Below are positions 13,476-60,085 of a stretch of DNA of 64,000 nucleotides, one piece after another. The stretch is taken from contig OU342630.1 of assembly GCA_910589415.1 (NCBI GenBank), positions 16,959,867 through 17,023,866 on the forward strand, in the 5' to 3' direction. Each line of letters starts with the position of its first letter. Position 1 is the stretch's first letter. Origin of the DNA: Malachius bipustulatus. Taxonomy: Eukaryota > Arthropoda > Insecta > Coleoptera > Melyridae. Under the pieces are notes generated by a model. It ran no database searches, was not told the origin of the DNA, and saw nothing but the letters and a program-made list of their open reading frames with translations. The translations under genes were made by a program, and so were the position numbers.

Positions 13476-15059
13476 TACAGGATGTTCTACAAGCTCTATG
13501 ACAAACTTTGACAGATGGTAGGTTGCTTGATTTTAAACATATTTTTTTAATAAACATGGGTCCGATTCGTTTTTGTTTAGAAGTTACAAGCATTTAAAGA
13601 ATCGTAATTTTTTCAGTCAACCAGGAAGTGACACTAAATCGCTATGTCACTAAGACACTATGTTGACCAATGTACACTTATAAAATATACACTTACTTCA
13701 ATGAAAAACGTAGGCTGATAAATAGAAATATCGGTTGTTATGACAATAATAATTGTTAGTGTCATTTTAATTATTTATTAGATATTTCGTGTGAAAGTTA
13801 TAAATAAAAAATGCATTTATTCTCGACTGAGGAATATGCAGATATTGTGTTTGTATATGGGTATTCCAATGGTAACGCCAGACAAGCTGCTCAAAAATAC
13901 CGACGCAGGTATCCAAATAGACATCAACCTGCCCACACGGTGTTTAGTGCATCATTTCGTATACTTCGAGAAGCAGGTAATCCCGCTCCAAAGAAGGCTA
14001 TTCGCCCTACTGAAGTAAATGTACAAGATGAAGAAAATGTGATAGATGCTGTCCTCGATAACCCTTCAATCAGTGTTCGGCGTATTTCTAGTAACCTTCA
14101 TGTATCATCGAATTTTGTATGGCGTGTATTGAACAGAGAAATGTTACACCCGTTTCATCGCCAAAATGTACAGGCATTGCATGCTGGAGATGCCCCACAG
14201 CGATTAGGATTTTGTCGCTGGTTACTTCAGCAACAAGCACAAAATGATAGATTCATTTCGCTCGTCATGTGGTCTGATGAAGCGTGCTTTACTAGGGATG
14301 GCATAAATAATAATCATAATGAACATGTATGGGCGTTGCAAAATCCACTTGCAATTAGACCAAGACGATTTCAGCAACGATTCAGTGTCAACGTTTGGGG
14401 TGGCATTTTCAACAATAATTTATTACCTGTGCATGTTCTAAATGATCGTTTAAATGCAGATCTTTATAGACATTTCTTAGAACACGACCTTTTAGAGTTT
14501 ATTGATGACGTGCAACTCAATATTATTCAAAATATGTGGTATCAGCATGACGGTGCACCACCACATAGAGGAAGACAAGTTGCTGCTTGGCTAAATGAAC
14601 ATTTCCCGAATAAATGGATAGGTCAAGGAGGTCCAATATCATGGCCACCTCGTTCTCCCGATCTGAATCCTCTGGATTTTTATTTATAGGGACACATGAA
14701 GCAGCTGGTCTACCATGTTGAAATCGCTACCCATCAGCAGTTACTTGAAAGAATTCAAGATGCAGCTAACCAAATAAGAAATGATCCAAATCTCATTCTT
14801 CGAGTGACCGAATCTTTAGTTCGTCGATGTGAGGCTTGCATTCAAGCTGAGGGTGGACATTTCGAACAATTTTTATAGTCTTAAGTTTTGTGATTATCAT
14901 TTAATTTAAATTTTTATTGTTGATTGTTAATAAAGGTTAAATGCTTGTAACTTCTAAACAAAAACGAATCAGACCCATGTTTATTAAAAAAAATATGTTT
15001 AAAATCAAGCAACCTACCATCTGTCAAAGTTTGTCATAGAGCTTGTAGAACACCCTGTA
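13476..15059 (+). mobile_element. Mariner/Tc1-superfamily DNA transposon with 122-bp TIRs
   Basis: A 1584-bp element bounded by near-perfect terminal inverted repeats of about 122 bp (13476-13597 and 14937-15059) and flanked by TA target duplications at 13474-13475 and 15060-15061. The outer ends read TACAGG(A/G)TGTTCTACAAGC. One transposase gene occupies the interior, with an AATAAA signal at 14929-14934 just after the stop and inside the right end. TIR similarity of roughly 97 percent and a single obvious coding lesion point to a fairly recent insertion. Confidence 0.95.
13811..14878 (+). pseudogene. Mariner-type transposase, one in-frame stop
   Basis: A 355-codon cut-and-paste transposase. 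The N-terminus has a helix-turn-helix of the type common in insect transposases (YADIVFVYGYSNGNARQAAQ), followed by a second HTH (SVRRISSNLHVSSNFVWRVL). The catalytic region follows: first Asp in WSDEACF, second in QHDGAPPH, third in SPDLNPLDFYL. There are 41 residues between the second Asp and the Asp of PLDF, which suggests the DD41D branch rather than classic DD34D mariner or DD34E Tc1. A TAG at 14687-14689, just after DFYL where the family usually has Trp-Gly, breaks the frame. The reading frame then resumes unchanged for 62 codons. The product should be inactive unless the stop is read through. Confidence 0.9.
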
Positions 15060-32600: not shown

Positions 32601-33402
32601 CATACCAATCATACCATCCCAGACAGCTTCTCAACCCCTACTTGTTTTTATCGTTTTATCGACTACGTTTTACCGCATCTCGTCAAAGTCCTTTCAGGCT
32701 ATGCAAGTTCAATCTTCCGCTGCATACCACTGTTTTAAATCATTCATAAATTTTAAATATTAAACTTAAATTCATTAAAGTTACCGGATGGTAACTAGCT
32801 ATATTAGGGAGTTTTTGACGATGTTTTTGAAAAGGGCGTATTCGTTAGAGTGCTTATATAGAAAGTTTTAGACTCAGCACAATGGTAATAAACAAAAGTC
32901 TGAAGTACTTTAGCATTATAATCAACGTGGGCTTACAGCACGATATGCAAGAACTACCATTGCTAGACACGGTGTTTGGTAATTATTAACAGAATGTAAA
33001 ACAGAATAAAACAACCTATTTATCGGGCAGAACTTAACCAATATTTCTTTACTGTAATATATCCTCCATGTGTTGTATTATACATAACTCCTTCGTATTC
33101 AATGTTGCAGTGAAGTACCACAATAAAAGTGGCGTTTAGTTTATGTACCTACTAATAAAATATCAGCGTTCGATTGCCGATATAGACGATTCTATATTTG
33201 GGAGTTTGGATTTTAAAATTTGGTATAGCGTCCCAAATATTGATTCTAAACAACTTTTTTGAATAACTTGTCGTATTCGCCACATAAAAAAGCGCTTTGC
33301 TTGACGTAAAAAAAGATTTCGTGAAAATTTCCAGCGCGTACTTGATTTTTCAAGACTAAATTAAGTTAGAACTTGGTCTTTCGTACAAGCTAGTTTGAAC
33401 CC
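29641..33402. other. No gene recognised apart from the MITE at 30.8 kb
   Basis: A GC-richer stretch at 30480-30680 carries a 71-codon frame without recognisable features. The LTR element inserted at the right edge. Confidence 0.45.
30832..31050. mobile_element. 219-bp MITE
   Basis: Inverted arms of about 62 bp: ACTTATAAATATTCAAAATT on the left, with a diverged complement ending ATTCATAAGT on the right. They share CATAGTTTTTAA.TAAATTGA. Confidence 0.85.
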
Positions 33403-34167
33403 TGAAATGGATCGCACCTAGGTAGGATTATAAGGAAATTATTTCCTTCGCCTCAGTAAATCAGCTCAAACCGAAAAAGCAAATAGTGCGAGATTAGGTA
33501 CGTAAATACCTAAAGGTAAAATTGTTAGAAAATTCAAACACAGCCACCCGCCGTTACATCAAGTAAACGATCCCGCCAGCACATTAAATATTCATAAAAC
33601 AAAATCGCTCCAGCTAGCCACAATTCAGTCCTTCGAGAAAGCGGCAACGGCGAGGGCAAACCTTTGCCAGATGTTAGGGCAGACACTGTCGGTCCGCGTG
33701 ATGAAATAATAGGTGACCTACATACAAGAACGGATGGAAAGAAACAGACCGTGTGAAGGAATGTGAAATCAGAATTTAAACAATAAGCCTTCGCAGAGAC
33801 AATGGTATCTCGTGGGATATCATACCTACGAATATTAAAATTACACCAATCGATAGGGCGAATTAATAAACCCCAATAGCCGGAAAAGCACCCCGGTACC
33901 TAAACGACAAGTAAGGGAAAACACGAAGTGAAAGTTAAGTCGGTGTAATTATAATAACTAGACACAATGAGAAGTACCAAAACGCGTTGACCGATTTGAA
34001 GGAAAATTTAGATAGTGCAGGTTTAGGAAAATTCAGTGAGATAGCCGCGAGGCCGAATCGCTAAGTCCAGTAATAAGGAAAACACGATTAAGGACTAAAT
34101 CACGGCAGGAGAGAAGAGTCAATAAGGTTCATTATTGCGCGGTGTTTAGAAATCGGGCGACTGCTTC

Positions 34168-34175
34168 TATAAAAG
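34168..34175 (+). promoter_or_regulatory. TATA box in left LTR
   Basis: TATAAAAG lies 765 bp into the LTR, with the same motif at 37888-37895 in the right LTR. A start about 25-31 bases downstream would leave roughly 2.8 kb of R plus U5, which is unusually long. Confidence 0.5.
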
Positions 34176-34240
34176 CAGACGTCCTGCCGCTGTTCGAGGC
34201 AGATGAGATCAGCTTTCGAGCAGGTCACGTCTGACTCCAT

Positions 34241-34450
34241 AACCCTTTGGCGTAAACCCGACGAGAAGGCGTTTAGTGAACTCTCGGTCGCCCAATCCTT
34301 ATCTAAACCAAACCCTTTGGACGTAAACCCGACGAGAAGGCGTTTAGTGAACTCTCGGTCGCCCAATCCTTATCTAAACCCAACCCTTTGGACGTAAACC
34401 CGACGAGAAGGCGTTTAGCGAACTCTCGGTCGCCCAATTCTTATCTAAAC
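34241..34450 (+). repeat. Three-copy 70-bp tandem repeat in left LTR
   Basis: Units start AACCCTTTGG at 34241, 34311 and 34382. They are near identical and share the core CGACGAGAAGGCGTTTAG. They sit just downstream of the TATA box. Confidence 0.9.
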
Positions 34451-36264
34451 TTTACCCATATCAATTTGCATCTCTCCTCTAAACAACTCAAACTTCGCAG
34501 TTGGCAAACTCTCTTCACAACAAAATCCACATCGATAAATAATTATACAGATTCGCCCAATCCATGAGTGCAGGTCCCATTTTAAATCAGACACAATAAT
34601 CAACTAGGTATTAGGCGACACCACAATAGGTACCTACGCGATTACGTCAATAATTAGAAATAAACCAAGTTAGGCAGAAAACAGGAATAAATAATTACAT
34701 ATTCACGCATAGGAAATTGAGATAGAGCTAGGAGCGAAAATAGACTTAGGTCAGGAAATAACCTGTAAACAAAACGGCCCATGATTCAATCATCCTATTC
34801 TTCGAAGAGTCCGAGTTTTTAAATAGCGCAGATGGTTAGGCAGGAAGTAGTCCCTTTAAATGCGATTTAGAAAGTGAAAGGAATTTCTTGCCATTATATG
34901 ACACCATAAATAAAGATCACATAGCAGAGCACCCCCGGTTGGCACAGGTCCGGATAGAGCAGGGCGGCGTTGTCAGATGTAGCATCCGCTACTTCGCAAA
35001 TATTATCAGGAAATACTAATTCCATTACAACCCCAATTAGGAGTTAAAATAGGTAATCGATTAACCCCCGGGGGAGGCATTCACCTCGATGTCCAGGTGA
35101 AGACCTCCGTTGTACCGGAAAGTGGAAATCATAGATCGCAACAGGGTAAAAGCACCCTCAGAGTAGGACAGCGTAATCAAAGCAAGGTTGTCAGGTGTAA
35201 TAACCGCCCTCACATATCAGGAAATCCAATAACCAAAATAAAGTTAGGATTATGAATTGCAATTCACAAATAAAGACTCAAAACACCTCAAATTAATCTC
35301 GAGTATGGGAAAGCCAAAAAAGAAAGTCAAGCAACCAAAGTATCATTGTAAGATCGTTTTTCCGAGGCTCTTCTATTTAAACAGAGACAAAATTGTCCTG
35401 TGCAATCAACCCAGGTATTCAGTAAAATCTCCACACTCACAGTTGATCAAAGCGACAATATAAAAACTCTAATGACCAATCAAATAACTCATTGCCTAAG
35501 GAGGCAAGGTAAAACAAACAGGTTGCAACCAATAGTATAACAATCAGTACTGTTAACAGGTATATAGGGCAATACTGTGCACGGTGGGGGCGATTGCTGG
35601 TCTCGTTACAATTGTATTCCCGAAACCAAGCCGGCACCAGTAGGTACCAATTACAAATTCCAGCATTTTTATCAGTACTGACTAGTTAGGGGTAGAAACC
35701 AGGAACACGGTGGAATCGATGGTTGGTCTCGATGTCCGCAAATATGCCGGTTCCAGGAGGTACCAAACTAAAAATTCCAACATTTCAATTCTTCGCCAGG
35801 TAGCCCACAGGGGCAAAAAGGTAATCAAAAGGTTAAACCAAAGTAAACAAACAAGGTTTACCAAATAGCGATAATATGAGTTATCAAGCAGGTCATGAGT
35901 AAAAGTAAACGGAGGCGAAATAATTCCCTCTCCCAGTAAAAATACACGGAGGTGAAACAATTCCCTCTCCCAGGTAAATCAACTGTGAAAATAAAATCAC
36001 TAAATAAAAGAGAATCGGAAAGAACGATTTCATAAAGATACTAACTCAACATTCAAGAGAAATGGCAACCCCGTACTAGAATCCACTCGCTAGGTAAAAA
36101 TCAACTTAAACGGCCCGTATCTCAATCCGTTGGCTATTATAGCTAGGCAACCAATATGCCAACAGCCCTCCATGCTCGATGTTTAACTCACGTTAGACTT
36201 ACAGGCGACGCAGCTAGACATACAGGGTGATTCTCCCGGTTGGAAATTGAGTAGCAAATCATTC

Positions 36265-36498
36265 AGACATTCCCGCAATATACCGGGTCGTCTGAAAACA
36301 ACCTAGTTGTATTCTTTAATTAATTCAAGCAGTTGCTTGAAGTGAAGTCAAAGAAACTAGAAAAAGGAAATTAGGCAAGGAAAATCGTTGAATAGTTAAA
36401 CGCACGGACATTTCCGCATATACCGGATAGTCTGTAACCGAAACAAAAGCGAAAACGAAATAATAAGACATTCCCGCATATACCGGGTAGTCTGTAAA
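36265..36498 (+). repeat. Three dispersed copies of a 33-bp motif in LTR
   Basis: The motif (A/G)GACATTCCCGCATATACCG followed by GGTAGTCTG occurs at 36265, 36406 and 36466, and again in the right LTR at +3720. A shorter duplicated motif, GGAGG(C/T)GAAA(T/C)AATTCCC, occurs at 35911 and 35948. Confidence 0.8.
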
Positions 36499-36969
36499 CG
36501 AAACAAAAACAAAAAGAAAGCACAGGTGTGCAAAAGAGTGGAATCCGAAATGGATTATAGTTTGAAAGATGGATGAAAGGGATCCCTCTTCGCTTTCCAT
36601 TTTTTTGTACTATCTATGCAAAATCACAGCCCATCTCGCCATTCACCATTTACGCCCTTGAAAACGAATTCTCTCGCTCATCACTCGCTTTTAAACATCT
36701 GATAGGAAGCCAACAGTTAACAACGAGTCTCAGTAAATTTCCCCGCTTTTCCGACAAAAGAAAAATCCCACTAGGTTCTTTGCGCATCCGTTTCGGCCAT
36801 AGTAATCCTGGCATACCTCAATCAAAGAGCAGGGGCGACTACGGTAATGACTACGGTAAACACAACGTAGGAAAACTCAGCGGTTCTATTAGGAGAAATT
36901 AGGGAAACTAGACGATCACACGGTGGCTTTTCGCGACAGATCATCGGGCCGGGGGTCTCGTCGTTACAT

Positions 36970-36988
36970 TGGTGCCGTGACCAGGATT
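36970..36988 (+). promoter_or_regulatory. tRNA-His primer-binding site
   Basis: TGGTGCCGTGACCAGGATT lies one base after the left LTR. It is the complement of a tRNA 3' end reading ...GGTCACGGCA-CCA. The CACGGCA acceptor strand is that of tRNA-His, whose 5' end is GCCGTG. It would prime minus-strand DNA synthesis. Confidence 0.85.
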
Positions 36989-37072
36989 GAGGGCTAATAC
37001 GCGGGAATAAATTGGCCGAGAAGGAAAACCCAAAACCAAAAACACCAAAACCAAGTAGGAGAGTTAGGGGGC

Positions 37073-37112
37073 GTCTTCCGTCTATCAGGGTACCCTCTGA
37101 TAGCCTGAAGAC
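37073..37112 (+). promoter_or_regulatory. Stem-loop in the LTR element interior
   Basis: GTCTTC pairs with GAAGAC and CTATCAG with CTGATAG around an 8-nt loop containing GGTACC. It lies between the primer site and the polypurine tract, a plausible place for an RNA packaging or dimerisation signal. That role is inference only. Confidence 0.6.
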
Positions 37113-37122
37113 GAGGGGGCGG
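37109..37122 (+). promoter_or_regulatory. Polypurine tract
   Basis: AAGACGAGGGGGCGG directly abuts the TGAAATGG start of the right LTR, the expected position for the plus-strand primer. Confidence 0.8.
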
Positions 37123-40100
37123 TGAAATGGATCGCACCTAGGTAGGATTATAAGGAAATTATTTCCTTCGCCTCAGTAAATCAGCTCAAACCGAAAAAGC
37201 AAATAGTGCGAGATTAGGTACGTAAATACCTAAAGGTAAAATTGTTAGAAAATTCAAACACAGCCACCCGCCGTTACATCAAGTAAACGATCCCGCCAGC
37301 ACATTAAATATTCATAAAACAAAATCGCTCCAGCTAGCCACAATTCAGTCCTTCGAGAAAGCGGCAACGGCGAGGGCAAACCTTTGCCAGATGTTAGGGC
37401 AGACACTGTCGGTCCGCGTGATGAAATAATAGGTGACCTACATACAAGAACGGATGGAAAGAAACAGACCGTGTGAAGGAATGTGAAATCAGAATTTAAA
37501 CAATAAGCCTTCGCAGAGACAATGGTATCTCGTGGGATATCATACCTACGAATATTAAAATTACACCAATCGATAGGGCGAATTAATAAACCCCAATAGC
37601 CGGAAAAGCACCCCGGTACCTAAACGACAAGTAAGGGAAAACACGAAGTGAAAGTTAAGTCGGTGTAATTATAATAACTAGACACAATGAGAAGTACCAA
37701 AACGCGTTGACCGATTTGAAGGAAAATTTAGATAGTGCAGGTTTAGGAAAATTCAGTGAGATAGCCGCGAGGCCGAATCGCTAAGTCCAGTAATAAGGAA
37801 AACACGATTAAGGACTAAATCACGGCAGGAGAGAAGAGTCAATAAGGTTCATTATTGCGCGGTGTTTAGAAATCGGGCGACTGCTTCTATAAAAGCAGAC
37901 GTCCTGCCGCTGTTCGAGGCAGATGAGATCAGCTTTCGAGCAGGTCACGTCTGACTCCATAACCCTTTGGCGTAAACCCGACGAGAAGGCGTTTAGTGAA
38001 CTCTCGGTCGCCCAATCCTTATCTAAACCAAACCCTTTGGACGTAAACCCGACGAGAAGGCGTTTAGTGAACTCTCGGTCGCCCAATCCTTATCTAAACC
38101 CAACCCTTTGGACGTAAACCCGACGAGAAGGCGTTTAGCGAACTCTCGGTCGCCCAATTCTTATCTAAACTTTACCCATATCAATTTGCATCTCTCCTCT
38201 AAACAACTCAAACTTCGCAGTTGGCAAACTCTCTTCACAACAAAATCCACATCGATAAATAATTATACAGATTCGCCCAATCCATGAGTGCAGGTCCCAT
38301 TTTAAATCAGACACAATAATCAACTAGGTATTAGGCGACACCACAATAGGTACCTACGCGATTACGTCAATAATTAGAAATAAACCAAGTTAGGCAGAAA
38401 ACAGGAATAAATAATTACATATTCACGCATAGGAAATTGAGATAGAGCTAGGAGCGAAAATAGACTTAGGTCAGGAAATAACCTGTAAACAAAACGGCCC
38501 ATGATTCAATCATCCTATTCTTCGAAGAGTCCGAGTTTTTAAATAGCGCAGATGGTTAGGCAGGAAGTAGTCCCTTTAAATGCGATTTAGAAAGTGAAAG
38601 GAATTTCTTGCCATTATATGACACCATAAATAAAGATCACATAGCAGAGCACCCCCGGTTGGCACAGGTCCGGATAGAGCAGGGCGGCGTTGTCAGATGT
38701 AGCATCCGCTACTTCGCAAATATTATCAGGAAATACTAATTCCATTACAACCCCAATTAGGAGTTAAAATAGGTAATCGATTAACCCCCGGGGGAGGCAT
38801 TCACCTCGATGTCCAGGTGAAGACCTCCGTTGTACCGGAAAGTGGAAATCATAGATCGCAACAGGGTAAAAGCACCCTCAGAGTAGGACAGCGTAATCAA
38901 AGCAAGGTTGTCAGGTGTAATAACCGCCCTCACATATCAGGAAATCCAATAACCAAAATAAAGTTAGGATTATGAATTGCAATTCACAAATAAAGACTCA
39001 AAACACCTCAAATTAATCTCGAGTATGGGAAAGCCAAAAAAGAAAGTCAAGCAACCAAAGTATCATTGTAAGATCGTTTTTCCGAGGCTCTTCTATTTAA
39101 ACAGAGACAAAATTGTCCTGTGCAATCAACCCAGGTATTCAGTAAAATCTCCACACTCACAGTTGATCAAAGCGACAATATAAAAACTCTAATGACCAAT
39201 CAAATAACTCATTGCCTAAGGAGGCAAGGTAAAACAAACAGGTTGCAACCAATAGTATAACAATCAGTACTGTTAACAGGTATATAGGGCAATACTGTGC
39301 ACGGTGGGGGCGATTGCTGGTCTCGTTACAATTGTATTCCCGAAACCAAGCCGGCACCAGTAGGTACCAATTACAAATTCCAGCATTTTTATCAGTACTG
39401 ACTAGTTAGGGGTAGAAACCAGGAACACGGTGGAATCGATGGTTGGTCTCGATGTCCGCAAATATGCCGGTTCCAGGAGGTACCAAACTAAAAATTCCAA
39501 CATTTCAATTCTTCGCCAGGTAGCCCACAGGGGCAAAAAGGTAATCAAAAGGTTAAACCAAAGTAAACAAACAAGGTTTACCAAATAGCGATAATATGAG
39601 TTATCAAGCAGGTCATGAGTAAAAGTAAACGGAGGCGAAATAATTCCCTCTCCCAGTAAAAATACACGGAGGTGAAACAATTCCCTCTCCCAGGTAAATC
39701 AACTGTGAAAATAAAATCACTAAATAAAAGAGAATCGGAAAGAACGATTTCATAAAGATACTAACTCAACATTCAAGAGAAATGGCAACCCCGTACTAGA
39801 ATCCACTCGCTAGGTAAAAATCAACTTAAACGGCCCGTATCTCAATCCGTTGGCTATTATAGCTAGGCAACCAATATGCCAACAGCCCTCCATGCTCGAT
39901 GTTTAACTCACGTTAGACTTACAGGCGACGCAGCTAGACATACAGGGTGATTCTCCCGGTTGGAAATTGAGTAGCAAATCATTCAGACATTCCCGCAATA
40001 TACCGGGTCGTCTGAAAACAACCTAGTTGTATTCTTTAATTAATTCAAGCAGTTGCTTGAAGTGAAGTCAAAGAAACTAGAAAAAGGAAATTAGGCAAGG

Positions 40101-40688
40101 AAAATCGTTGAATAGTTAAACGCACGGACATTTCCGCATATACCGGATAGTCTGTAACCGAAACAAAAGCGAAAACGAAATAATAAGACATTCCCGCATA
40201 TACCGGGTAGTCTGTAAACGAAACAAAAACAAAAAGAAAGCACAGGTGTGCAAAAGAGTGGAATCCGAAATGGATTATAGTTTGAAAGATGGATGAAAGG
40301 GATCCCTCTTCGCTTTCCATTTTTTTGTACTATCTATGCAAAATCACAGCCCATCTCGCCATTCACCATTTACGCCCTTGAAAACGAATTCTCTCGCTCA
40401 TCACTCGCTTTTAAACATCTGATAGGAAGCCAACAGTTAACAACGAGTCTCAGTAAATTTCCCCGCTTTTCCGACAAAAGAAAAATCCCACTAGGTTCTT
40501 TGCGCATCCGTTTCGGCCATAGTAATCCTGGCATACCTCAATCAAAGAGCAGGGGCGACTACGGTAATGACTACGGTAAACACAACGTAGGAAAACTCAG
40601 CGGTTCTATTAGGAGAAATTAGGGAAACTAGACGATCACACGGTGGCTTTTCGCGACAGATCATCGGGCCGGGGGTCTCGTAATTACA
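37123..40688 (+). repeat. Right (3') giant LTR
   Basis: A copy of 33403-36968. The only difference I found is AA at 40682-40683 where the left LTR has CG at 36962-36963. It is followed by the ACCC target duplication. Confidence 0.93.
37961..38170 (+). repeat. Three-copy 70-bp tandem repeat in right LTR
   Basis: The exact counterpart of 34241-34450. Confidence 0.9.
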
Positions 40689-41374
40689 ACCCTAAAAAAT
40701 TAAAATTAAAATTGAGAATTTTTTATCTTTTACCAGAGTGGTTTCACATATCACTGTACAAATTAGTACCTGGAATAGATTTATACTGTTCACTAATAGT
40801 ACTTTCATGCTCCAACCTTTCAGTGAAGATAATATGGTCTACATAAACGGTTTCGATTAAATCAATGTTATTTAATAGAGTTATATTTTGTTTTGATTTA
40901 TGAGTTGTGTTAAGGTATTAGTGTATTTTTTTTTCTTATCATTAATAGCTACTTATATGCGGTAATTTTATAAAAGAAATTAAAGTGATCAGCAACAAGG
41001 CACCGGTCGTTGTATTTTGTAGGTATGTCGTATGTCGTTTTCAAGGGGAATATTTTTTATACAGTGTGGAACAGCTAGACAGAATAAATTCATTATTTCA
41101 TTAATTGGGCATACCTAAGAAATCCCGAAACATGTCGATTTTAGATTATATTTGACATCCTACAGCGTAGAAATTTCATCCCTAAAGTCAACCCGCTTTG
41201 AGCGACAGTTGTGACTCCTAAGTTTTTAAAAAACCTCATTTGCATTTATTGCAATTAAGTTTTATTTTTTACAATATAGCGTCTCGCCCGTTAGAGATAG
41301 AAAAAAAAAAGATGTGAGAGAAAAGTTGTATGGTTTGAAGAGATCTATAACCTAAAATTATTTTCAGTAATACA

Positions 41375-45368: not shown

Positions 45369-45579
45369 GTAAATATTCATAGCGTATACATAGGCAGTAC
45401 ACAGCTCTTATTCTTATTCCGAACACAATAAGAAAAAAATTCACGTTATTGATTTTAATTTTTGTACCAAAGTTCTATCCGAATCGGTTCAAAATTTAGA
45501 GGGGAGGGGAGACTAATAACGTCCCCAGGGTATAACTAAAAATAAATTATTCTAAACATAACGTCGTTTCCTATTTCAG
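45369..45579 (+). other. UNC-93-like intron 1
   Basis: A short 211-bp GT-AG intron, AT-rich compared with the flanking exons. I see no repeat in it. Confidence 0.85.
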
Positions 45580-45985
45580 GGCACGGCTAATTTACAAAGC
45601 AGTATCAACGCAGAGGGCGGCCTGGGTACGATATCACTTTGTTCGATATTTGCCGCTCTAGCCGTCAGCTGTATTTTTGTACCAACGTTCCTGATAAAAA
45701 GGCTAACCGTAAAGTGGACGCTGGTCGTGTCAATGCTCTGCTATGCCCCTTACATGGGGGCCCAATTCTATCCCAAGTTCTACACACTAGTACCAGCTGG
45801 AGTACTCCTAGGTCTGGGCGCAGCACCCATGTGGGCGTCTAAAGCTACCTACCTCACACAAGTGGCAGGAGTCTACGCGAAGCTAACTGATCAAGCAGTG
45901 GATGGCATTATCGTGCGCTTCTTCGGGTTCTTCTTCTTGGCTTGGCAGACGGCCGAGCTCTGGGGGAACCTTATCTCATCACTAG
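45580..45985 (+). CDS. UNC-93-like protein, second exon
   Basis: This exon follows a 211-bp intron, with acceptor CTATTTCAG and donor CTAG|GTAAG, and contributes 135 codons plus one base. It opens with GTANLQSSINAEGGLGTISL, the hallmark region after the first membrane helix in UNC-93 proteins. Further hydrophobic segments follow, around CSIFAALAVSCIF, VVSMLCYAPYMGAQF and AGVLLGLGAAPMWASKATYL. The Gly/Ala-rich WASKATYL stretch is a strong family signature. The exon ends in another helix (FFGFFFLAWQTAELWGNLIS). The order of motifs matches the family, with no stop or frameshift. The split last codon is completed by TA of the next exon to give Val. Confidence 0.93.
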
Positions 45986-46011
45986 GTAAGATGCTATTGC
46001 GTTACTTAAAT

Positions 46012-46204
46012 TATCGGGTGATCCACAAAATTTTTCATCAACCAGTGCCTTGGTAAAAATGAAGCATGTCTGCCAGTCTGTCGTCAGATAAAATGCAAAC
46101 TACTGGTAGGTGTGCTCAGGTGCAGTGAGCTCAGACGTGACTGCAATAGCTATCTCTCTCTTCCAAGGCACTAGTTGATGAAAAATTTTGTGGATCACAC
46201 GATA
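46012..46204. mobile_element. 193-bp MITE next to exon 2 donor
   Basis: Arms of 42 bp (46012-46053 and 46163-46204) match except for a few bases, for example GATCCACAAAATTTTTCATC. It lies only 26 bp after the UNC-93 exon 2 donor. Confidence 0.85.
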
Positions 46205-47389: not shown

Positions 47390-47692
47390 TGCAGGGTGAG
47401 TCAAGTTCTTTTTTTACTTTACCAACTTCTACCATATCGATGGTCTAATTCTAATACCCCGTAACTGTATCAATCAATATTTTACAGGAGAGAGCTTTTT
47501 TAGTTTTAAAGGGCTAAATATGATTCAGGAGGTTACAAAACTTTTTTTGTAGCTAATTTTACAAGCCAATACGGTGTATTTCAACTCATGACAGAGTAAA
47601 CGTACAACCGAATGGCGCGAAAAAGTAAAATTTGGATTTTTGCAGATACGGGGTATTAGAATTATTAGACCATCGTTATGTAAAGTCCCCTT
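47390..47692. mobile_element. Foldback remnant interrupted by a MITE
   Basis: TCGATGGTCTAATTCTAATA and CCCCGTA are repeated inverted at 47640-47685. The left end is GCAGGGTGAGTCAAG. The right end is interrupted at 47692 and resumes at 48130 (AAGTGGAATATCAT). A related uninterrupted stretch lies at 49430-49505. Confidence 0.6.
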
Positions 47693-47693
47693 A

Positions 47694-48129
47694 TGTCCGT
47701 ATTCATCAAACTTCAAAATATAACTCTGGGGTTATATTTTGAATTTTCTGACAGCTGATTGGTCTAATGCTCAAACCCTACGAACGCTACGAATTTTAAA
47801 CCAATGACATGTTCTAAAATTTAACCCCAGGGGTTATATTTTTAATTTTTTAATTAAATTTAATTTTTTTTAATTTAAATTTAAATTTAATTTAATTTTA
47901 ATTTTGAATTTTCTGACAGCTGATTGGTCTAATGCTCAAACCCTACGAACGCTACGAATTTTAAACCAATGACATGTTCTAAAATTTAACCCCAGGGGTT
48001 ATATTTTGGAACATGTGATTGGTTTAAAATTCGTAGCGTTCGTAGGGTTTGAGCATTAGACCAATCAGCTGTCAGAAAATTCAAAATATAACCCCAGAGT
48101 TATATTTTGCAGTTTGATGAATACGGACA
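47694..48129. mobile_element. 436-bp MITE with partly duplicated arm, TA target
   Basis: The ends are TGTCCGTATTCATCAAAC, flanked by TA at 47692-47693 and 48130-48131. Arms of about 130 bp include ACAGCTGATTGGTCTAATGC. The left arm is present one and a half times, separated by an A/T-only spacer (47850-47900). Confidence 0.9.
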
Positions 48130-48379
48130 TAAGTGGAATATCATATGACCCTTCAAAAGTGTCAACTCCCCTGCTCTGTTATAATACAGGGTAATTTGTT
48201 AAATTTGAAAAATATTCATTTCGCTATAATATCTACACGGGTCATTAGAATTTTCTAATTTTATACATTTTGTCTAGCATTCGATCAGCGTTCTCTAAAC
48301 TTAGAATTTCACACTGTAAACGATTTTTGAAAATGTATTTATTGATTTTCAAACAAATAGACAATGCATACAATATGTA

Positions 48380-49233
48380 TACAGAGTGAGTCCCCTAAGA
48401 TGGAAAGCTCGATTACACCTACACCATTAAAGATATCGAAATGAACCAAAAAGTGCTGTAAGGGGGAGGGAAAAGTGCAATTTGTAAACTTATTTTCAGA
48501 TATACAGGTGGCCCAATATCGTTGTACGCCATACAACTTTGTCATTTTAAATACGACACCCTCTATATTATTACATCTTCAGATTGTTTGAGAAAATTAA
48601 AAAAGAATGGTTTGTAAAGTTAAAGTTTGTAACGAGTGATTCATGAGTTATAAACAAATGAAAATCACGGTTTTCCATTCTCAAAGCAACTTATCTTAAA
48701 AATGGCTCAAGATAGAGGAAAACGGCTTGCATGTTCCTATCTTAATTTTTCATTTGGTATCCTATCATGTAGGTGAAATTTTTATACCGGGTGATAAAAA
48801 TTATCAAATTTTTTACAACTCTGTAAAAAAATTTCATACACCCAAGAGGGATGCCGGATTAAAAGTTAAGATAGGAACATGTAAGCCATTTTCCCATATC
48901 TCGAGCCGTTTTCAATATAAGCTGCTTTGAAAAAGGAAAATCGTGATTATTATTTTTTAATAACTCATAAATTGCTCATTACAAACTTCAACTTTACAAA
49001 CCATTATTTTTGACTTTTCTTAAACAATATGAAAATGTGATAATATTTAATAATATCCTATTTAAAATGACAAAGTTGTATGGCGTACAGCGATATTGGG
49101 CCATCCTGTATATCTGAAAATAATTTTACAAACTGCACTTTGTCCTCCCCTTCACAGCACTTTTTGGTTCATTCCGATATCTTTAATGGTGTAGGTGTAA
49201 TCGAGCTTTCCATCTCAGGCGACTCACCCTGTA
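48380..49233. mobile_element. 854-bp foldback element
   Basis: Almost the whole element is palindromic at moderate identity. The ends are TACAGAGTGAGTC and GACTCACCCTGTA. The inner arms carry ATACAGGTGGCCCAATATCG and its complement, which resembles a second set of termini nested inside. A partial copy is at 41375. Confidence 0.85.
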
Positions 49234-49389
49234 TGTGTCATTGTTGTCACACTTTCATAGAATTTTTCATAAGCGATCGAATGTGATCAAAACTGAAAAG
49301 CCACCAGGACGCACCACATTATAATGGCGGTATGCAGGGTATACATACATAATAAGGTACACAGTTTGAACTCTTCGTACGAACTCTTC

Positions 49390-59291: not shown

Positions 59292-59609
59292 GGCATCGCA
59301 AAAAAAGGCTGGTGAATTACTGCAATGGAAATGTGTTTTGAGTTTTTCCCAATATTTAATAATAACGTCAACAAATAAGAAAACGTAAAATTGAATTTTT
59401 TTTTTTTGCAAAATAATTCGAAAATCAAATATAATTTTTAAAATCTCTTTCTCCATTGCATTGTCCTTCTGGCTTTCCAACTTATTCCACATTTAACCAA
59501 CCCTGTATCTGAGATCCTGATTCTGTTCATTCTTATCTTAGACACAGAGTAGGTCTAAGGTCTAAGGTAGATCATCAAAATGTTTAACAGTAGGTATCAT
59601 TGTTTTTAG

Positions 59610-60040
59610 GTACGGCGAGAAGCAACGACGCAACAGCACCGTAGAGCTTACCGGTCTCCAACTTCTTTCGGCTACCGCGTACCAGCTAAAAAAACCCTAC
59701 CAGCAACTACTGATCCCGCTGACCGTCTTTATTGGCATGGAACAGGCCTTCATCAGCGCCGACTTTACTCAAGCTTACGTGGCCTGCGCGCTGGGTGTTT
59801 CCTCGGTCGGCTTCGTAATGATCTCCTTCGGCGTAGTAAATGCCATCTGCAGTTTGTTTTTCGGTACCATGATGAAGTACATCGGTAGGATCCCTATAAT
59901 TTTGCTGGGCGCCTTCGTTCATCTTGGTCTCCTGTCGTGGTTGCTGATCTGGCGCCCGCATCCCAGCAATGATTACCTCTTCTTCCTCGCCGCAGGATTA
60001 TGGGGGGTAGCTGATGCTGTATGGCAGACGCAAATTAATG
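59610..60040 (+). CDS. UNC-93-like protein, fourth exon (gene continues beyond window)
   Basis: This 431-bp exon runs from a GTTTTTAG acceptor to an AATG|GTAAG donor. It starts with a charged cytosolic linker (YGEKQRRNSTVEL), then the second half of the transporter-like fold. Four hydrophobic segments are centred on LLIPLTVFIGMEQAFISADF, VSSVGFVMISFGVVNAICS, IPIILLGAFVHLGLLSWLLI and YLFFLAAGLWGVADAVWQTQ. The motifs GMEQAF.ADFTQAYVACALG and GLWGVADAVWQTQIN are highly diagnostic of UNC93 proteins. The four visible exons give about 449 residues. The last conserved helices and C-tail must be encoded further right; I find no further exon up to 64000. Confidence 0.93.
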
Positions 60041-60085
60041 GTAAGTAATTTTTTCTGTAGGATAAGATTCTCTCTAGACGTAAAC

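What the first reader, a model, noticed from the sequence alone, without database searches (positions are those of the whole stretch)
33403..40688. LTR retroelement with 3.57-kb LTRs and only 154 bp between them
Seen directly: two 3566-bp direct repeats, TG...CA ends, an ACCC target duplication, a primer-binding site directly after the left LTR and a purine tract directly before the right one. Known categories do not fit well: TRIMs have short LTRs, and LARDs have multi-kb interiors. About 98 percent of this element is LTR. Near identity of the LTRs implies recent mobility, so some autonomous partner must recognise it. This may be an undescribed class of non-autonomous element in which almost all sequence is duplicated at each transposition.
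Basis: partly seen in the sequence, partly recalled or inferred. Interest (0 to 1): 0.88.

Follow-up and report, generated by a model that had tools for sequence, protein, structure and literature searches.

The report
Retroelement family made almost entirely of LTRs
This animal genome holds a whole family of gene-less jumping elements that consist of two very long, nearly identical ends with only about 154 bases between them, a layout that the standard categories do not cover and whose end sequences vary in an odd, clustered way.

Summary
It is not a one-off deletion or an assembly error. In the same 544-Mb genome I read 15 full copies and 10 solo LTRs. All 15 full copies have a 154-157 bp interior; 24 of 25 copies have matching 4-bp target duplications, of 14 different sequences. 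The LTR start occurs 994 times exactly, control 0. None of the 25 carries gag-pol, and 24 LTRs checked are non-coding. [quoted passage not shown] A relative with a 98-bp LTR and homologous interior and U5 end suggests a TRIM lineage whose LTRs grew. A second oddity: the last ~10-55 bp of U5 differ between the two LTRs in 6 of 15 copies, at ~125 times the substitution rate of the LTR body (14 copies), and terminal cassettes are swapped between LTRs otherwise 98-99% identical. Its mechanism is inferred only.

The parts
33399..33402 (+). target-site duplication ACCC, left copy
   Evidence: read directly
33403..36968 (+). left LTR, 3566 bp, TG...CA
   Evidence: the LTR-start 20-mer occurs 994 times in the genome
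34168..34173 (+). TATAAA, likely promoter; U3 would then be about 33403-34195 (start site inferred)
   Evidence: motif scan; transcription start inferred, not shown
34241..34450 (+). 3 copies of a 71-bp tandem repeat inside the LTR (again at 37961-38170)
36935..36962 (+). hypervariable U5 terminus of the left LTR, just before (G)TTACA
36969..37122 (+). whole interior, 154 bp, no gene found
   Evidence: 154-157 bp in 15 of 15 full copies
36970..36988 (+). primer-binding site, 19 nt; that it matches the 3' end of animal tRNA-His is recalled
   Evidence: sequence direct; tRNA identity recalled, the genome check did not complete
37072..37113 (+). hairpin, loop with palindrome GGTACC; possible packaging or dimer signal (inferred)
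   Evidence: region nearly invariant in 15 copies
37110..37122 (+). polypurine tract GACGAGGGGGCGG
   Evidence: read directly; invariant in the 15 interiors aligned
37123..40688 (+). right LTR, 3566 bp
40655..40682 (+). hypervariable U5 terminus of the right LTR; differs from the left at 40682 (and at 40683)
40689..40692 (+). target-site duplication ACCC, right copy

Best explanation
A young copy of a recently mobile, non-autonomous LTR retrotransposon family whose normal form is giant LTR (3.4-4.1 kb in the copies read) - about 154 bp - giant LTR. Likely cycle (inferred from known LTR-retrotransposon biology): host RNA polymerase II starts at the TATA box in U3; the RNA has about 2.8 kb of R-U5 leader, then primer site, hairpin, purine tract and U3-R; a partner element's gag packages it; a tRNA (tRNA-His, recalled) primes minus-strand DNA; the purine tract primes the plus strand; the partner's integrase inserts it with a 4-bp duplication, preferring TA in the middle. 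The interior is thus reduced to the cis signals of reverse transcription, while the promoter and most other sequence sit in the LTR and are doubled in each DNA copy. A relative with a 98-bp LTR suggests that the family is a TRIM lineage whose LTRs were inflated by captured sequence (direction inferred).
For: Structure exact. 15 of 15 full copies have a 154-157 bp interior that varies at few columns, while LTR middles differ or do not align. 4-bp duplications match in 14 of 15 full copies and 10 of 10 solo LTRs; 16 of these 24 have central TA. LTR bodies within a copy differ by substitution at 19 of 49,532 aligned positions (14 copies, L017 left out), so insertions are recent. 994 exact LTR starts, control 0; 75 U5-end+primer sites, control 1. 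No reading frame above 145 aa in 24 LTRs. Relative L038: interior and U5 end align far above 500 letter shuffles.
Against: No partner found: 0 of 142 high-scoring Gypsy RNase-H matches lie within 15 kb of a listed primer site on the same strand, 1 on the opposite strand; the BEL search did not complete and Copia was not searched. Transcription, priming and packaging are untested. L009 lacks a matching target duplication (its right flank is LTR-like sequence of the family). One assembly only, no reads.
Confidence: 0.87

Rival explanations
1. One-off internal deletion of an autonomous element that has 3.57-kb LTRs.
For: A primer site and purine tract at the two edges are what a deletion would leave.
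Against: 15 of 15 full copies at different loci have the same interior, and so do 7 of 10 further sites that I sampled. Among the 100 listed LTR starts the same-strand gaps under 20 kb are seven of 3.7-5.0 kb and one each of 5.8, 8.0 and 16.5 kb; the 8.0-kb one starts at a solo LTR that has its own target duplication (L024), the other two were not read.
Confidence: 0.03
2. Assembly duplication or collapse of a single 3.7-kb unit.
For: Near-identical 3.57-kb repeats next to each other are hard to assemble; no reads were available to check.
Against: Same form at 15 loci, 14 with matching target duplications that differ between loci; in many copies the two LTRs carry private differences, clustered at U5.
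Confidence: 0.02
3. For the U5 oddity: the swapped U5 ends arise after insertion by gene conversion from other copies rather than during reverse transcription.
For: About a thousand LTR starts mark possible donors; terminal cassettes recur in other copies (the right end of L010 and the ends of L011 share the last 31 nt).
Against: Conversion has no reason to stay within the last ~55 bp; the rest of the 3.5-kb LTR pairs hardly differs.
Confidence: 0.25
4. Ordinary LARD or ordinary TRIM.
For: LTR size as in LARDs, interior size and content as in TRIMs (definitions in passages of PMC3532108).
Against: Interior 154 bp against ~3.5 kb for LARDs; total 7.3 kb against <1 kb for TRIMs.
Confidence: 0.08

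Closest known systems
TRIM (terminal-repeat retrotransposon in miniature), e.g. PbTRIM of the harvester ant (PMC3532108)
   Same: Non-coding interior with primer site and purine tract; 4-bp duplications in PbTRIM; solo LTRs; partner unknown there too (passages).
   Different: TRIMs are under 1000 bp with LTRs of ~100-350 bp (passages); here LTRs are 3.4-4.1 kb and full elements about 6.9-8.4 kb (6.5 kb for L017 with its deleted LTR).
LARD (large retrotransposon derivative)
   Same: Multi-kb LTRs, non-autonomous.
   Different: LARDs have ~4.4-kb LTRs with ~3.5-kb central domains (passages of PMC3532108); here the centre is 154 bp.
Helenus / Ajax / Cassandra (TRIMs with small-RNA promoters, PMC10886601)
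   Same: TRIM layout; animal Helenus makes 4-bp duplications; some vertebrate and bivalve Helenus use tRNA-His as primer (passages).
   Different: Helenus is 311-1263 bp with tRNA-like sequence in the LTR; no tRNA gene and no Rfam family found in this window.
RLG_Cereba / RLG_Quinta autonomous and non-autonomous pair (PMC11302176)
   Same: Model for mobilisation in trans: shared primer site and LTR termini (passages).
   Different: Quinta still encodes gag; here no gene was found and no partner identified.

Membership tests
LTR retrotransposon (any) | direct LTRs with TG...CA, target duplication, PBS, PPT | tested here: met
LTR retrotransposon (any) | copies at independent sites with different target duplications | tested here: met
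   24 of 25 copies read
TRIM | total size under 1000 bp, LTR ~100-350 bp | tested here: not met
   7286 bp, LTR 3566 bp; LTRs 3.4-4.1 kb in the other copies, apart from one deleted LTR (L017) and one with an insert (L029)
TRIM | no coding capacity; interior with PBS and PPT | tested here: met
LARD | multi-kb LTR | tested here: met
LARD | multi-kb non-coding central domain | tested here: not met
   154-157 bp in 15 of 15
Helenus/Cassandra (TRIMp3) | tRNA or 5S rRNA sequence in the LTR | tested here: not met
   no Rfam match at gathering score, ARAGORN none; weaker, partial likeness was not tested
Gypsy-mobilised element | shares primer site and LTR termini with a Gypsy element of the genome | tested here: inconclusive
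   0 of 142 high-scoring PF17917 sites near a listed primer site on the same strand; only 150 of 2983 candidates were scored
BEL- or Copia-mobilised element | shares primer site and termini with such an element | not tested
   PF05380 search did not complete; Copia not searched

The most novel reading that the evidence does not exclude
The family reverse-transcribes in a way that gives its two LTRs different U5 ends: minus-strand synthesis reads through the primer site into the first ~10-55 nt of U5 of a second, co-packaged RNA (or of a partner's RNA) before jumping to the plus-strand strong-stop DNA. The U5 terminus and primer site would then be swapped as cassettes between cycles, which could let one passenger fit several partners' integrases and primer tRNAs. 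The inflated LTR would be a further novelty: a passenger that moved nearly all its sequence into the part that is doubled in each DNA copy.
Probability: 0.3. Interest if true: 0.83.

Novelty: new variant of a known kind. Interest (0 to 1): 0.68.

Why it matters
It shows that a successful retroelement passenger need not be small: it can carry 98% of its length in LTRs with about 150 bp between, so the usual TRIM/LARD split misses a form. The 994 exact LTR starts would amount to some 3.5 Mb or 0.65% of the genome if each marked a full-length LTR (arithmetic). Of the 100 listed starts, 85 are not in a full-copy pair, as expected if long LTRs with a tiny spacer recombine easily to solos. The clustered difference between the two U5 ends of one insertion is not expected from textbook reverse transcription, in which both LTRs are copied from one strong-stop DNA; it also warns that LTR dating should leave out the U5 terminus.

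Tried and rejected
One-off deletion and assembly artefact: rejected (see rivals). U5 cassettes copied from elsewhere in the element: no support, only one 13-nt match of a cassette (L020) to the interior's purine-tract region at E 0.032. Coding capacity hidden in the LTR: none above 145 aa in 24 LTRs; Pfam found nothing at E 0.01 in the three frames from the element that I gave it. The divergent U3 relative at L036 2790-3582 (77.8%) as autonomous partner: no frame above 125 aa in the 7.2 kb behind it. Partner by Gypsy RNase H near primer sites: none on the same strand. Prokaryotic and viral collections: no match to exact patterns or by blastn. Two distinct primer-site forms (GTGACC 9, AGCGACC 6 of 15) as proof of two primer tRNAs: not shown, tRNA genes could not be searched. 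Compensatory change in the hairpin: the few variable bases do not look compensatory by eye, so no covariation support.

Full report
WHAT IS THERE. The window lies in an unnamed 544-Mb genome in 52 contigs, at G000:C1:16959867-17023866. UNC-93-like stretches (45562-46056, 59566-60048) and a transposase frame (13808-14689) were recognised by Pfam; that the host is an animal, probably an arthropod, is my inference from these. The described element is real: LTRs 33403-36968 and 37123-40688, 3566 bp each, 2 adjacent differences; interior 36969-37122; ACCC on both sides.

IT IS A FAMILY. A genome search with the first 998 bp of the LTR scored 40 of 1264 candidates; 28 of the 40 main matches form 14 pairs 2.6-4.3 kb apart. 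I fetched 28 stretches; L029 and L030 are longer cuts of L014 and L018, and L036 overlaps L022. With the window they give 15 full copies (window, L009-L013, L014=L029, L015-L017, L018=L030, L019-L021, L032), 10 solo LTRs (L022-L028, L031, L034, L035) and one rearranged stretch (L033). These are the best-scoring relatives of the window's LTR, not a random sample. All 15 full copies have an interior of 154-157 bp. Matching 4-bp target duplications flank 14 of 15 full copies and 10 of 10 solos; 16 of these 24 have TA in the middle, against a TA frequency of 0.088 in the window. L009 is the exception: its right flank is LTR-like sequence of the family.

WHOLE-GENOME COUNTS. The exact 20-mer at the LTR start occurs 994 times (489 + 505), control 0; only the first 100 places are listed. 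Among these 100 the same-strand gaps under 20 kb are seven of 3.7-5.0 kb and single ones of 5.8, 8.0 and 16.5 kb. The string GTTACATTGGTGCC (U5 end plus primer site) occurs 75 times, control 1. I have read 25 of these 75 sites: 14 in the full copies (L009 ends in CTTACA and is not among the 75), one in L033, and 10 that I picked by hand from the other 60. Of the 25, 21 have the ~154-bp interior, L033 is rearranged, L038 is a small relative, L047 continues into other sequence, and L044 looks like a chance match. By coordinates alone, all 8 family sites on C1 below 63.5 Mb have the next LTR start 153-156 bp after the primer site; the ninth site there is L038.

WHAT IS CONSERVED. The interior varies at few columns in 15 copies: primer site, an A-rich middle, hairpin, purine tract. 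In the LTR the first ~1.8 kb and the last ~0.7 kb align in 20-23 of 23 other LTRs at 91-99% mean identity per bin, while bins between 1951 and 2550 align in only 5-13 of 23. No LTR of 24 has an open frame above 145 aa. So the family has a fixed core of signals and an exchangeable middle without recognisable genes.

A SMALL RELATIVE. L038 (C1:28459400-28459730) has a 98-bp right LTR and a 127-bp interior; its left LTR is only partly in the stretch fetched. Outside the primer site its interior aligns with the window's at score 45 against 21.8 +- 4.3 for letter shuffles (0 of 500 reach it); the U5 ends align at 30 against 14.9 +- 2.8 (0 of 500); both have a predicted hairpin directly before the purine tract. 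I read this as a TRIM of the same clan, and the giant-LTR family as a TRIM whose LTRs grew. The direction is inferred; loss in the other direction is possible. The primer-site search (81 places, control 0) also shows clusters 117-480 bp apart, perhaps arrays of small elements; these were not read.

THE U5 ODDITY. Within a copy the two LTRs are nearly identical except, often, at the very end of U5. Over 14 copies (L017 left out, because its left LTR carries a large deletion that confuses the alignment) 40 of 831 positions differ in the last 60 bp against 19 of 49,532 in the rest, about 125-fold; indels are not counted. With L017 kept the figures are 40 of 891 against 105 of 51,956, 22-fold. Six of 15 copies carry the difference (window, L009, L010, L012, L019, L020); 28 of the 40 come from L010 (13) and L019 (15). 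L032 has instead 5 extra bases at the right end. Nine of 15 show no substitution there, so the effect is common but not universal. Between copies the terminal cassettes are exchanged irrespective of the LTR body: the window and L025 are 98.9% identical over 3506 bp but differ at 12 of the last 40. The primer site has two forms (GTGACC in 9, AGCGACC in 6 of 15) that are likewise exchanged between otherwise identical interiors (L013, L015). In textbook reverse transcription both LTRs derive from one strong-stop DNA (recalled), so this needs read-through past the primer site on a second RNA, or later conversion. I cannot decide between them.

HOW IT PROBABLY WORKS. Shown: structure, copy number, target duplications, recent insertions, lack of recognisable genes. 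Inferred: transcription from the TATA box at 34168, tRNA priming (tRNA-His recalled), packaging by a partner's gag through leader and hairpin, integration by a partner's integrase. A TA-centred 4-bp target fits Gypsy-type integrases (recalled). Gypsy-type RNase-H matches abound: 150 of 2983 candidates were scored, all without a stop in the match, in open frames of 302-1414 aa. But none of the 142 I compared lies within 15 kb of a listed primer site on the same strand, and one does on the opposite strand. That leaves a BEL or Copia partner, a lower-ranked Gypsy, a partner with another primer site, or an extinct one.

COMPARED WITH WHAT IS KNOWN. By the definitions in PMC3532108 (passages) TRIMs are under 1000 bp with LTRs of ~100-350 bp, and LARDs have ~4.4-kb LTRs with ~3.5-kb centres. 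This family fails the size test of TRIMs and the interior test of LARDs. I saw no paper describing giant LTRs with a TRIM interior in the answered searches (open-access library only; I saw listings, and passages of five papers: PMC10886601, PMC3532108, PMC11302176, PMC3212995, PMC3442997). Repbase and subscription journals were not searched, so such a family may be recorded there. Verdict: a new variant of a known kind, with an unexplained U5 pattern that deserves follow-up.

Noticed in passing
L038 (G000:C1:28459400-28459730): TRIM-size relative with 98-bp right LTR, 127-bp interior, homologous U5 end, hairpin and purine tract; its two U5 ends also differ.
   Followed up: partly
G000 C1:54443742-54444416, C4:34932685-34933110, C4:46312135-46312632, C13:4696987-4697123, C16:36906372-36906675: Clusters of the same 20-nt primer site 117-480 bp apart, perhaps arrays of small elements.
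   Followed up: no
L047 (G000:C6:18409675-18410005): Homologous U5 end and primer site followed by another interior; could be a partner or a broken copy.
   Followed up: no
L009 and L033 (G000:C13:9199000-9215800): Rearranged cluster: a full copy next to inverted LTR pieces of the same family, no matching target duplication.
   Followed up: partly
L036 2790-3582: A 77.8%-identical U3 piece head to head with a solo LTR, a possible second, older subfamily.
   Followed up: partly
L029 right LTR; L017 left LTR; L032 right end: Right LTR 565 bp longer in L029; left LTR 1.3 kb shorter in L017; 5 extra terminal bases at the right end of L032.
   Followed up: no
window 13808-14689 (+): Transposase-like frame of 293 aa (DUF4817 helix-turn-helix; weaker DDE_3 and Tc3-type matches below their cut-offs).
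   Followed up: no
window 45562-46056 and 59566-60048 (+): Two exon-like stretches of an UNC-93-like transporter.
   Followed up: no
G000, many places: Dozens of Gypsy-type frames of exactly 1143 aa with the same RNase-H score, a recently expanded family.
   Followed up: no
window 48379-49234 and 47686-48137: Large inverted repeats: 48379-49234 matches its own reverse complement at 84%, 47686-47842 matches 47981-48137 inverted at 95.5%.
   Followed up: no
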